64,000 nucleotides of DNA. Source: Vibrio cidicii. Lineage in GTDB: Bacteria > Pseudomonadota > Gammaproteobacteria > Enterobacterales > Vibrionaceae. The notes below the pieces were generated by a model that saw only the letters and a list, made by a program, of their open reading frames with translations, had not been told where the DNA came from and did no database searches. Numbering within the stretch: position 1 is the first letter of the stretch; every line of letters begins with the position of its first letter. The translations under genes and the position numbers were made by a program. Shown piece by piece: positions 5,176-64,000 of the stretch. The stretch lies in assembly GCF_009763805.1 (NCBI RefSeq), contig NZ_CP046803.1:310001-374000 (forward strand). Direction: 5' to 3'.

Positions 5176-6259
5176 TTAACTGCCGAGAATCAGCAGTGGC
5201 AGGCGCATCAACTCATCGCCTGTAGACGCAAAATACCAAATGATGGCGACAAAGCTCATTACCGACACAAGATACCAAGTAAAAGCGATCGTCTGACCAT
5301 AGCGTGTTAAGGGTAAAAGATGACTGTTATGTCGGCCTCGCCATTCAAGCACTATCTCTAACATCCCCATCACCAACAAAAAACCAAACAGGGTTAAGCC
5401 AAAAGTGTACGAAAGATAAACGCCAGCCGCCGCCGTCAGTACACCACCCGCTAAGCCAACCCAACTGTTCATCGAAAAAGTGATGCTCTTGAGCACATGT
5501 CCGCCATCCAAGGGTAAAATTGGCAGCAAGTTGAACAGGTTTAGCAAGGCGTTAAACATGGCTAAAGCGGCAAAAAACATCTCTCCGGTCAACCAATAGA
5601 TCAACGTCAGCAGCACACTCAATATTAAGCCAAAGAAAGGCCCCATGATGGAGATAACGACATCCTGCCAGCGAGTGTTAATTTTCTCATCACTGAGCGC
5701 CATGCCACCAAAAAATGGGATCAAATAAAACCCTTTGGTTTTCATACCGAAATATTTCATCGCTCGCACGTGACCGTACTCATGGATCACCAAGCAGGCA
5801 ATCAATGCTAAGGCAAACTGAAAAGAAAACAGCCAAGAGTATGCTGCCAAACTCATTGACGCTAACGCTATTTTAATCAGCTTGGCACTCTTTAGCGCTT
5901 TCATTCCCAGCGAAACCAAGCCGATCAGGCTGAACTTACGCGGTTCTTGCCTTGGGGTAAGCGGCGTTTGCTGCTCGATATCTTTTTCTGTACGAGTACC
6001 TTGAGCGCTTGTCTCGCCATTGACTAAGCAATGATAGCGAAACTCAAATGGCTGCCAATGTAACTCCCCCTTCACTTCACAGCGCAACTCCGCTTCACCC
6101 GCCATCAAGACGAAACTGGTGATGGAAAGCGGCATCTTGCCCTTGTGTCGCATCGATTTGAGACACTAATGCGTTATCCCAAAAAAGTTGCTGCCACCCA
6201 GCCATTGACCCTTCTATACGTAAAGGACGGCCAAGAAATTCAATATGTAGTAGTTCCAA
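5176..6259 (-). CDS. M50 site-2-type membrane metalloprotease (one-base frameshift)
   Basis: Polytopic membrane zinc protease of the M50 family. The zinc motif HEYGH and the downstream NLLPILPLDGGH motif, which supplies the third ligand, both sit in membrane segments. The N-terminal about 90 residues (ELLHIEFLGRPLRIEGS onward) are soluble and lie in another frame. The frames meet at the C-run 6098-6100 (GGG on the coding strand). Removing one G joins LDGG to EAELRCEVKGE without loss and gives 360 residues. The start is uncertain: TTG at 6259 has AGG at suitable distance; TTG at 6286 is also open. Family members cleave membrane-embedded regulators or signal peptides; the substrate is unknown. 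It is convergent with the M48 gene. Confidence 0.8.
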
Positions 6260-6289
6260 AATGAGACCTGAGATAAGCGAAGTCAATGG

Positions 6290-6626
6290 TTGGCATTATG
6301 CCTTTGCGCAAGAGAGGTGAAAAGAGCTGAAATTGGCATAAACGCCTCTCTGTCTGAGGATTCTTATAAAAAAGCACTAAACAATTCTGGTCGTACCATT
6401 CTTAGAAAAAAAATCTACATAATACAGCCCCTTATAAATTGTCATTTGACCTATGCATCAAATCTAATGCTTAAAAGAGCAGCAAACTTTGACAAGTTTA
6501 TAAACATTCAATTAACATTACATTTACATTGCAAGCTCATAGACGCACTCTTTGTGTTTGCACTATACAACAAACAACAATTACAAGGACTTCAGTCCAC
6601 AATTATGAACCCTAGGAGGGTCAAGG
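6290..6626. other. Intergenic leader upstream of fadL, no gene seen
   Basis: AT-rich 340-base region between the M50 gene and fadL. A 114-codon frame crosses it and runs into fadL, but it has no ribosome site and reads as low-complexity leader. The only recognisable element is the FadR-like site listed separately. AGGAGGG precedes the fadL start. Confidence 0.6.
6387..6399. promoter_or_regulatory. Candidate FadR operator upstream of fadL
   Basis: CTGGTCGTACCAT matches the FadR palindrome CTGGTCNGACCAG at all but two positions. It lies about 230 bases before fadL. In gamma-proteobacteria FadR controls fatty-acid uptake and degradation, so the position fits. No DNA-binding test is possible here. 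Confidence 0.5.
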
Positions 6627-62045: not shown

Positions 62046-62078
62046 AAAGCTGCCTGCACCGTGGGCAGCTTTTTTTCA
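62046..62078 (+). terminator. Intrinsic terminator between gcvH and gcvP
   Basis: AAAGCTGCC and GGCAGCTTT form a 9-bp stem around TGCACCGT, followed by five further T bases, 17 bases after the gcvH stop. It lies inside the glyA-gcvH-gcvP run. Confidence 0.8.
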
Positions 62079-62147
62079 AGGCTGAACGACCCAAAGCGCA
62101 TGCTAAGAAACGCAGAGGACACACAGCTTATTTGAAGGTAAAGGACC

Positions 62148-64000
62148 ATGACTGAATTACTTCAAAGCCTCAACACACAACATGAGTTCGTTGCTCGCCA
62201 CAACGGACCGAATCAATCTGACCAGCAAAAAATGCTGCAAGCGATCAACGTCACAAGCCTCGACGCTTTGATCGAACAAACCGTTCCTGCGCAAATTCGC
62301 TTGGAAAAACCGATGCAGCTTGCGCAAGCGAAAAGCGAAGCAGACATGCTACTGGCGATGAAACAGTTCGCCAACCTAAACCAAGTGAAACGTACCTTCA
62401 TTGGCCAGGGTTACTACAACACGCTGACACCGAATGTCATTTTGCGTAACGTACTGGAAAATCCGGGTTGGTACACTGCCTACACGCCATACCAACCAGA
62501 AATTTCTCAAGGTCGATTGGAATCGCTGTTGAACTATCAACAGATGGTGATGGACCTAACCGGCATGGACATTGCGAACGCATCGCTGCTTGATGAAGCC
62601 ACCGCGGCGGCCGAAGCGATGACCCTTTGTCAACGTGCGGGTAAGAGCAAGAGTAAAGTGTTCTTCGTCGCCGACGACGTTCACCCACAAACCCTCGAAG
62701 TGGTTAAAACGCGGGCCAAATACTTTGGTTTTGATGTAGTCATCGGCGCGCTAGATGCTCTGCCTCAAACTGAAGCGTTCGGCGCACTACTGCAATACCC
62801 GGGCACAACCGGTGAAGTTCGCGATCTCACCGAGATCATTACTAAAGCGCAAGCGAACAAAACATTAGTTGCTGTTGCCACTGATTTACTCGCGTCTACC
62901 CTACTCAAGCCAGCTGGCGAAATGGGTGCAGACGTGGTGATCGGCAGCGCACAGCGTTTCGGCGTTCCTATGGGCTACGGCGGTCCGCACGCAGCGTTTA
63001 TGGCGACGCGCGAGCAACACAAACGCACCATGCCGGGCCGTGTGATTGGCGTTTCTATCGATGCCAAAGGCAACCAAGCTCTGCGTATGGCGATGCAAAC
63101 ACGTGAGCAACACATTCGCCGCGAGAAAGCGACGTCAAACATCTGTACAGCTCAGGCGTTACTTGCCAACATGGCCTCTTTCTATGCCGTTTATCACGGC
63201 GCGCAAGGCCTTCGCACCATCGCTCGCCGCACACACCACATGACTGCGATTTTAGCCGCTGGCCTGACTAAAACTGGTTTTGAACTAGCGCACAACGCTT
63301 TCTTTGACACCATCACTATTAACACCGGTGATCAGACTCAAGCGCTTTACGCTAAAGCGCAAGCCGCCGACATCAACCTACGTTTGCTTGAGGGCCAGAT
63401 TGGTATCAGCTTTGACGAAACCACCACGGTTGCTGACGTCGAAGCACTCTTTGCTATCTTCGGCGTGAATGAAGCTGTCAACGCTCTTTCAAGTGACATT
63501 GCCAGCAACGAATTTGCCGCGATTCCAGAAAACTGTCGTCGTACGAGTGAGTATTTGACCCACCCAGTGTTCAATACCTACCACAGCGAAACGCAAATGA
63601 TGCGTTACCTGAAAAAGCTTGAAAACAAAGACTTCTCGCTAACACACGGCATGATCCCACTGGGCAGTTGTACGATGAAGCTCAACGCGGCGGCAGAGAT
63701 GATTCCGGTCACTTGGCCAGAATTTGGGGCTCTGCACCCATTTGCGCCGATTGAACAAGCCGCGGGTTACACTGCACTTGCCGAAGATCTCAAAGCTAAG
63801 CTGTGTGAAATTACGGGTTATGACGCGTTCTCACTGCAACCCAACTCGGGCGCATCTGGCGAATACGCCGGCCTAGTGGCGATTCAACGCTACCATGAAA
63901 GCCGTGGTGAAGGTCATCGTAACGTCTGCTTGATCCCAAGCTCGGCCCACGGCACGAAACCCAGCGACGGCCTCTATGGTGTCGATGAAAGTGGTGGTGG
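62148..64000 (+). CDS. gcvP: Glycine dehydrogenase (decarboxylating), P protein, 5' part with one-base frameshift
   Basis: N-terminal 603 residues and more of the about 950-residue P protein, a PLP enzyme that decarboxylates glycine and loads the H protein. The open frame reads MTELLQSLNTQHEFVARHNG and continues through MGYGGPHAAFMATREQHKR, LGSCTMKLNAAAEM and LQPNSGASGEYAGL. The run AAA at 63957-63959 has one extra A: deleting it restores HGTNPATASMVSMKVVV, which is invariant in the family. As read, the frame goes to HGTKPSDGLYG. The gene runs off the right edge; the PLP lysine lies beyond. AAGGTAAAGGA precedes the ATG at 62148. Confidence 0.93.
   Translation, partial: MTELLQSLNTQHEFVARHNGPNQSDQQKMLQAINVTSLDALIEQTVPAQIRLEKPMQLAQAKSEADMLLAMKQFANLNQVKRTFIGQGYYNTLTPNVILRNVLENPGWYTAYTPYQPEISQGRLESLLNYQQMVMDLTGMDIANASLLDEATAAAEAMTLCQRAGKSKSKVFFVADDVHPQTLEVVKTRAKYFGFDVVIGALDALPQTEAFGALLQYPGTTGEVRDLTEIITKAQANKTLVAVATDLLASTLLKPAGEMGADVVIGSAQRFGVPMGYGGPHAAFMATREQHKRTMPGRVIGVSIDAKGNQALRMAMQTREQHIRREKATSNICTAQALLANMASFYAVYHGAQGLRTIARRTHHMTAILAAGLTKTGFELAHNAFFDTITINTGDQTQALYAKAQAADINLRLLEGQIGISFDETTTVADVEALFAIFGVNEAVNALSSDIASNEFAAIPENCRRTSEYLTHPVFNTYHSETQMMRYLKKLENKDFSLTHGMIPLGSCTMKLNAAAEMIPVTWPEFGALHPFAPIEQAAGYTALAEDLKAKLCEITGYDAFSLQPNSGASGEYAGLVAIQRYHESRGEGHRNVCLIPSSAHGTKPSDGLYGVDESGG

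What the first reader, a model, noticed from the sequence alone, without database searches (positions are those of the whole stretch)
6098..63959. Thirteen single-base homopolymer breaks in otherwise normal genes
Thirteen genes (M50 protease, volA-like, EamA, terC, 5'-nucleotidase, OLD nuclease, EAL, 167-aa unknown, glgC, chitinase, yqhD, EEP nuclease, gcvP) each carry exactly one indel. Ten are an extra base in an apparent run of three (6098, 11591, 13551, 15886, 17232, 24224, 30218, 35712, 41637, 63957). Three lack one base in a run of four or five (10254, 36608, 43618). Correcting each gives an intact product whose length is a whole number of codons, and in the recognised families the join falls in conserved residues. 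One indel per about 5 kb, all in homopolymers and including glgC and gcvP, looks like sequencing error, not real gene decay. Any annotation of this assembly will otherwise list thirteen false pseudogenes.
Basis: partly seen in the sequence, partly recalled or inferred. Interest (0 to 1): 0.75.

Follow-up and report, generated by a model that had tools for sequence, protein, structure and literature searches.

The report
Sulfur-marked DNA misread as broken genes
Most of the broken genes in this stretch of a Vibrio genome look like misreadings at a short sequence that some bacteria tag with sulfur, so they are probably false pseudogenes that betray a chemical mark on the DNA.

Summary
All 13 frame breaks are in the assembly and close relatives are intact (13 of 13 against G114; 12 of 13 against G166, which does not reach the last). 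Across 208 kb of both chromosomes 41 of 42 assembly-only one-base insertions in genes are at this motif. rpoC, secE and rplB are hit, so real mutation is effectively excluded. GAAC/GTTC is the published target of Dnd DNA phosphorothioation. This genome carries dndBCDE and dptFGH; dndC is absent from 5 of 5 compared relatives. Hit sites show the published flank preference of sulfur-modified sites. A second dnd-bearing Vibrio repeats it: 13 of 13 breaks are +1 at the motif. Best explanation: single-molecule base-calling adds a base at phosphorothioated sites, leaving a partial map of the mark in the consensus. No reads were seen; 16 of 17 other dndC+ Vibrio and 8 of 8 E. coli loci examined lack the signature. 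No mend is given.

The parts
5176..6289 (-). M50 protease gene in two frames (broken reading frame; intact copies exist in relatives)
7897..10367 (+). VolA-like gene (Pfam Lipase_bact_N) in two frames, shorter class
   Evidence: searched in pieces only
11244..12147 (-). EamA transporter gene in two frames
12749..13880 (-). TerC-family gene in two frames
14253..15947 (-). 5'-nucleotidase gene, frame broken near its start
16231..17896 (+). OLD-family nuclease gene (DUF2813 + TOPRIM) in two frames
23881..24694 (+). EAL-domain gene in two frames
29954..30458 (-). gene of unknown function (167 aa in relatives) in two frames
   Evidence: no Pfam match to the pieces
34989..36204 (+). glgC in two frames
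36283..39422 (-). chitinase gene in two frames, shorter class; intact 1050-aa V. navarrensis relative at 99%
40804..41953 (+). iron alcohol dehydrogenase (yqhD-like) gene in two frames
43550..44501 (+). endonuclease/exonuclease/phosphatase gene, shorter class (314 aa in relatives; the start given here is approximate)
62148..64000 (+). gcvP, frame broken near the window's end (gene runs on beyond it)
59312..59977 (-). further motif-class place, offset by a second length difference so that the ORF stays open

Best explanation
The ten longer places are consensus base-calling errors at DNA phosphorothioate (PT) marks. The organism carries a Dnd system (dndBCDE with dptFGH) that replaces a non-bridging phosphate oxygen by sulfur at a subset of GAAC/GTTC sites. 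A single-molecule (probably nanopore) base-caller not trained on PT calls the central AA or TT one base too long. Because the same sites are modified in most molecules, the error wins the consensus and stays unless short reads remove it. The result is about 0.2 false +1 differences per kb, including one in dndC itself, so an annotator would call the modifying enzyme a pseudogene although the errors suggest that it is active. The three shorter places are probably ordinary one-base undercalls in G/C runs. Shown here: motif specificity, the dnd locus, the flank preference, hits in essential genes, a second genome. Inferred: that the sulfur is there, the platform, and how the miscall arises.
For: Motif: 41 of 42 assembly-only one-base in-ORF insertions lie at GAAAC/GTTTC in 208,481 three-way aligned bases; G114 and G166 have 2 and 1 private in-ORF one-base insertions. 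35 of 1487 GAAC/GTTC sites gain a base against 3 of 28,485 sites of 17 other doublet classes, Fisher p about 1e-42 (run with 28,481). Not viable as mutation: rpoC, secE, rplB, EF-G and rplO are hit (10 of 29 hit ORFs were named). Prediction, written in the same turn before the answer was seen: dndC is in G000 and absent from 5 of 5 compared relatives; dndB, D, E, DptFGH and a PT-dependent nuclease flank it. Flanks: A/C at -1 in 31 of 37 hit sites (47% of 1527 kept sites), T/G at +1 in 27 of 37 (52%); MGAACK 24 of 387 against 13 of 1177 others, p 2e-7, as reported for PT-modified sites (PMC9521924 section 11). Occupancy 2.4%, against 3.9-4.4% flagged by nanopore (PMC9069010) and 12% by EcoWI-seq (PMC9521924). 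Second genome: G010, dnd-bearing, 13 breaks, 13 of 13 are +1, 13 of 13 at the motif, chance of the motif 8.6% per 35 bases. Not a general hotspot: 0 of 5 +1 breaks in other assemblies are at the motif.
Against: No reads, platform or chemistry of G000 or G010 were seen. Of 17 other dndC+ Vibrio, 16 show no well-supported break around rpoB; with G000 it is 2 of 18 dndC+ against 0 of 20 dndC-, not significant alone (p 0.22). Eight dnd loci of E. coli (of 204 genomes with a match) show intact dndBCDE, and none of 7 comparisons with L213 shows a motif-like gap among 71-83 sites each. G010 was examined further because its rpoB was already seen to be split. In G010 the flank preference is weak (6 of 13 MK against 21.5%, p 0.04). 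In G000 the published G at +2 is not significant (p 0.09) and C at -4 (p 0.0004) is preferred without a counterpart in the section read. The nanopore paper, in the parts read, reports error at PT sites but not specifically an inserted base. One of 42 in-ORF insertions is not at the motif.
Confidence: 0.88

Rival explanations
1. Generic homopolymer indel error of the sequencing platform.
For: All 13 places are in runs; the three shorter ones are in G/C runs of 4-5. G000 has 10 private in-ORF one-base deletions, 6 of them in runs of 4 or more, against 5 in G114 and 3 in G166.
Against: 35 of 1487 GAAC/GTTC sites against 3 of 28,485 other doublets; no in-ORF insertion in runs of three or more; other error-bearing drafts have 0 of 5 +1 breaks at the motif.
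Confidence: 0.03
2. A different DNA modification or structure at GAAC/GTTC, not phosphorothioate, causes the same base-calling error.
For: No chemistry was done; a methyltransferase for this motif was not searched for. One paper passage warns of overlapping substrates for methylation and PT (PMC9069010).
Against: The genome and G010 both carry dnd loci; the flank preference matches published PT sites; occupancy is a few percent, as for PT and unlike most methylation (the last recalled).
Confidence: 0.07
3. Real frameshift mutations: a mutator strain (mutL is split) or mutation favoured at PT sites, with genuine gene decay.
For: mutL is in two frames with a further stop; the changes are at one motif, which a modification-directed mutagen could produce.
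Against: rplB has no other copy in the genome and is split; rpoC and secE are hit; the mutL break is itself at the motif; mutators favour long runs (recalled), which are not affected in ORFs.
Confidence: 0.02

Closest known systems
Dnd phosphorothioation of GAAC/GTTC in Salmonella enterica Cerro 87 (PMC9521924: passages and section 11; PMC9069010: passages and sections 17, 19)
   Same: Same tetranucleotide, modification of a few percent to 12% of sites, preference for A/C at -1 and T/G at +1, dnd genes.
   Different: There the marks were measured on DNA; here they are inferred from errors in a finished consensus of a Vibrio.
Nanopore detection of PT through base error, ELIGOS (PMC9069010)
   Same: PT causes base-calling error around GAAC/GTTC in native nanopore reads.
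   Different: Works on reads against amplified controls; in the parts read, no +1 consensus error, false pseudogenes or public assemblies are reported.
Modification-mediated nanopore consensus errors in Listeria (PMC10687267, passages)
   Same: Unmodelled modifications leave motif-specific errors in nanopore-only genomes, linked there to a defence system.
   Different: Motifs GCAGC and GCTGG; its correction ignores indels; phosphorothioate and dnd occur 0 times.
Gene-fragmenting indels of long-read assemblies (PMC8011154, PMC12007338; search listing and start of abstract only)
   Same: Frame breaks that look like pseudogenes; fits the 3 shorter places.
   Different: Usually described by run length or platform, not by one tetranucleotide tied to a dnd locus (my reading of the abstracts).

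Membership tests
Dnd phosphorothioation system | dndC sulfurtransferase gene | tested here: met
   TIGR03183 over cut-off in G000, lying in two frames; N-terminal piece matches DndC at 2e-91
Dnd phosphorothioation system | dndB, dndD and dndE beside it | tested here: met
   DndB 1.8e-172, DndD 8.9e-288, DndE 4e-58; over NCBIfam cut-offs
Dnd phosphorothioation system | PT-dependent restriction partners DptFGH | tested here: met
   DptF, DptG, DptH over cut-off, and NF045808 nuclease
Dnd phosphorothioation system | DndA or IscS cysteine desulfurase | not tested
   no search was made
PT marks at GAAC/GTTC | tetranucleotide specificity with partial occupancy | tested here: met
   as error signature: 37 of 1575 and 35 of 1487 sites
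PT marks at GAAC/GTTC | A/C at -1 and T/G at +1 of modified sites | tested here: met
   MK 24 of 387 against 13 of 1177; weaker in G010, 6 of 13
PT marks at GAAC/GTTC | sulfur in the backbone shown chemically | not testable with these tools
   needs DNA of the isolate
Homopolymer indel error (longer class) | rate rises with run length, for all bases | tested here: not met
   37 of 42 are runs of 2 read as 3, one motif
Homopolymer indel error (three shorter places) | loss of one base in a run of 4 or more | tested here: met
   G/C runs of 4-5
True pseudogenes | essential single-copy genes are spared | tested here: not met
   rplB (no other copy), rpoC, secE

The most novel reading that the evidence does not exclude
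Finished public genomes hold a readable trace of their phosphorothioate epigenome: in some dnd-positive organisms assembled from native long reads, the PT-modified subset of GAAC/GTTC sites is written into the consensus as +1 frame breaks. Scanning assemblies for this signature would reveal PT-active strains, their motif and a partial per-site map without new sequencing, and would clear a class of false pseudogenes, including in the dnd genes themselves.
Probability: 0.7. Interest if true: 0.7.

Novelty: new variant of a known kind. Interest (0 to 1): 0.62.

Why it matters
It turns a list of apparent pseudogenes into evidence for an active DNA-backbone modification in a Vibrio. It warns that some long-read genomes of dnd-positive organisms hold many false frame breaks: 41 in 208 kb here, of the order of 900 if extended to 4.75 Mb (extrapolation), in essential genes too, and may inflate contamination estimates (3.23% here; inference) and pseudogene counts. 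It gives a cheap test, frame breaks at GAAAC/GTTTC, for finding such genomes and PT-modified sites in data already public.

Tried and rejected
Rejected: generic homopolymer error for the longer class; mutator or decay despite the split mutL. Programmed frameshifting was considered and set aside because the breaks fall in many unrelated genes at one motif (judgement, no test). The plasmid collection held no near copy of the first 25 kb (5 records, at most 4% covered). Rfam and tRNA scans of the window were empty. The low-support breaks (3 to 9 genomes) occur in 13 of 17 dndC+ and 17 of 20 dndC- genomes, mostly at two variable places, and were set aside as noise; at 20 or more supporting genomes only G000 (4) and G010 (2) remain, 6 of 6 at the motif. 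Dropped with them were low-support motif-tagged rows in G210, G213, G032 and G113 and one in G010. Two +1 breaks of the window (near 13520 and 57974) carry no motif tag because protein ends place them too far off; the DNA comparison puts both at the motif. Against G166 alone three further in-ORF insertions lack the motif; they are not shared with G114. Motif presence at the split dptH and dndD of G010 is uninformative (chance 0.24 and 0.45). E. coli: 8 dnd loci read of 204 genomes with a match, no sign of the signature; frameshifted features annotated outside the dnd genes there were not checked. RefSeq may be filtered against frameshifted assemblies (recalled), so this is weak. Strain and platform of G000 stayed unknown: its contigs (3,431,466 and 1,318,756) match neither 20-VB00237 (= G166 by size, PMC7862962 read whole) nor V. 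cidicii VC01 (PMC12671221, passages).
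Full report
WHAT THE WINDOW IS. The window is bases 310001-374000 of contig C1 (1,318,756 bases) in a two-contig Vibrio genome, G000, of 4,750,222 bases. In a search of 227 genomes of the genus (own included) with the chitinase piece, the nearest are G114 (98%) and G166 (96%). 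Over the 70 kb examined, identity is 95.5% to G114 and 93.9% to G166. G166's two chromosome lengths equal those printed for V. navarrensis biotype pommerensis 20-VB00237, a hybrid Illumina/MinION assembly. The chitinase piece is 99% identical to an intact 1050-aa V. navarrensis protein. The organism belongs to or beside the V. navarrensis group; strain and sequencing method are not known.

Against G114, 13 of 13 places show a one-base length difference in an ORF that is open in the relative; against G166, 12 of 13, the last lying beyond the aligned stretch. Relatives' ORFs show frame changes at 10 of the 13. In 104 loci of other Vibrio (2,019,118 bases) the same method finds 17 breaks supported by three or more genomes and 96 loci have none; the window has 9 in 64 kb.

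IT IS A MOTIF, NOT A RUN-LENGTH EFFECT. G000, G114 and G166 were compared three ways over 59,544 bases around the window and 148,937 bases of the other chromosome. G000 alone has 42 private one-base insertions in ORFs; G114 has 2 and G166 has 1. Of the 42, 37 turn a run of two into three, 5 are placed as new single bases, and none lengthens a run of three or more. In context, 41 of 42 sit at GAAAC or GTTTC: 12 of 12 near the window and 29 of 30 on the other chromosome (read from the rows; the 29 also selected by script). Outside ORFs only 1 of 16 does. Counted from the sites, 37 of 1575 GAAC/GTTC sites of G114 and 35 of 1487 of G166 carry the extra base in G000, against 3 of 28,485 sites in the other 17 tetranucleotide classes with a central doublet. 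All 10 longer places of the finding belong to this class; the 3 shorter ones are G/C runs without the motif.

IT IS NOT REAL MUTATION. The same signature breaks rplB (only two out-of-frame pieces found in the genome), rpoC, secE, an EF-G gene and rplO, and also mutL, acs, frdA and dsbD. The names come from intact G166 proteins; 10 of the 29 hit ORFs of that chromosome were scanned, one without a match. That rplB, rpoC and secE are essential is established knowledge. The split mutL (with a further stop that was not followed) would suggest a mutator, but it too is hit at the motif.

WHY PHOSPHOROTHIOATE. GAAC/GTTC is the Dnd target in Salmonella enterica Cerro 87 (PMC9521924 and PMC9069010). The hypothesis was written down in the same turn, before the answer of the gene search was seen. 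DndC was then found in G000 and in none of G114, G166, G021, G023 and G024. The locus on C2, about 653.7-669.7 kb, holds DptF, DptG, DptH, a PT-dependent restriction nuclease, a DGQHR-domain protein, DndE, DndD, DndC and DndB. dndC reads in two frames with a GTTTC at the junction, so an annotator would call the modifying enzyme a pseudogene. Hit sites have A or C at -1 in 31 of 37 (47% of 1527 kept sites) and T or G at +1 in 27 of 37 (52%); MGAACK sites are hit in 24 of 387 against 13 of 1177 others. PMC9521924 section 11 reports M at -1 and K at +1 for PT-modified sites, with C at -2 and G at +2, and reports the same sites modified in independent cultures, which would explain how an error can win the consensus. 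Here position -2 differs (p 0.012, C and G up), +2 does not reach significance (p 0.09), and a C preference at -4 (p 0.0004) has no counterpart in that section; 20 positions were tested. The rate of 2.4% is of the order of the 3.9-4.4% flagged by nanopore.

REPLICATION AND LIMITS. dndC passes its cut-off in 29 of 227 Vibrio genomes. I fetched the rpoB region of 17 others with dndC and of 20 without. At 20 or more supporting genomes, breaks occur only in G000 (4) and G010 (2), 6 of 6 at the motif. G010 has dndC and dndB, D, E and dptF, G, H. In 200 kb of G010, of which 76,663 bases were matched by relatives' proteins, 13 breaks are found: 13 of 13 are +1 and 13 of 13 at the motif. By the same method G201 and G210 (with dndC, 80 kb each), G032 (without, 80 kb) and G114 (190 kb) have none, G166 has one (-1, no motif), and G000's 177 kb has 24, of which 21 are +1 (19 at the motif) and 3 are -1. 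In eight other drafts that have breaks, 0 of 5 +1 breaks are at the motif and 2 of 12 -1 breaks have it within wide windows. Against generality: 16 of 17 other dndC+ Vibrio lack the signature around rpoB, their sequencing methods are unknown, and the association alone is not significant (2 of 18 against 0 of 20, p 0.22). G010 was followed because its rpoB was seen split. Of 5,426 E. coli genomes 204 match dndC/dndB; 8 loci were read, dndBCDE is annotated intact in 8 of 8, and 7 of 7 comparisons show no motif-like gap where about 72 sites would give 1 to 2 if affected. The natural reading is that short-read polishing, other platforms or newer base-callers avoid the error; this was not shown.

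PRIOR ART. PMC9069010 (passages, sections 17 and 19) shows that PT raises nanopore base error at GAAC/GTTC in reads. PMC10687267 (passages) shows motif-specific nanopore consensus errors from other modifications in Listeria. Six searches of the held library listed no paper whose title or abstract start concerns +1 consensus errors or false pseudogenes at PT sites; four of these lists were capped or used partial terms, and subscription journals are mostly not held.

VERDICT. The 13 breaks are artefacts. That they are artefacts: about 0.98. Phosphorothioate as the cause of the longer class: about 0.88.

Noticed in passing
   Followed up: yes
L154 and L155 (G000 C2 about 653.7-669.7 kb): dnd/dpt phosphorothioation and restriction locus with a PT-dependent nuclease; dndC absent from five compared relatives.
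   Followed up: yes
L098 (mutL): mutL is split at the same motif; taken at face value it would wrongly label the strain a mutator. A further stop in its second piece was not followed.
   Followed up: partly
G114 C1 (3,244,259 bases) and C2 (1,195,132 bases): In G114 the chitinase block lies on the 3.24-Mb contig and rpoB on the 1.2-Mb contig, unlike G000 and G166: a rearrangement between chromosomes or an assembly join.
   Followed up: no
window about 31.2 kb, against G114: G114 has about 20 kb of extra DNA at this point.
   Followed up: no
L018, L019, L075: Three other Vibrio drafts (CAIM strains) have 3 to 5 frame breaks in 20 kb, mostly -1, which looks like ordinary sequencing error of another kind.
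   Followed up: partly
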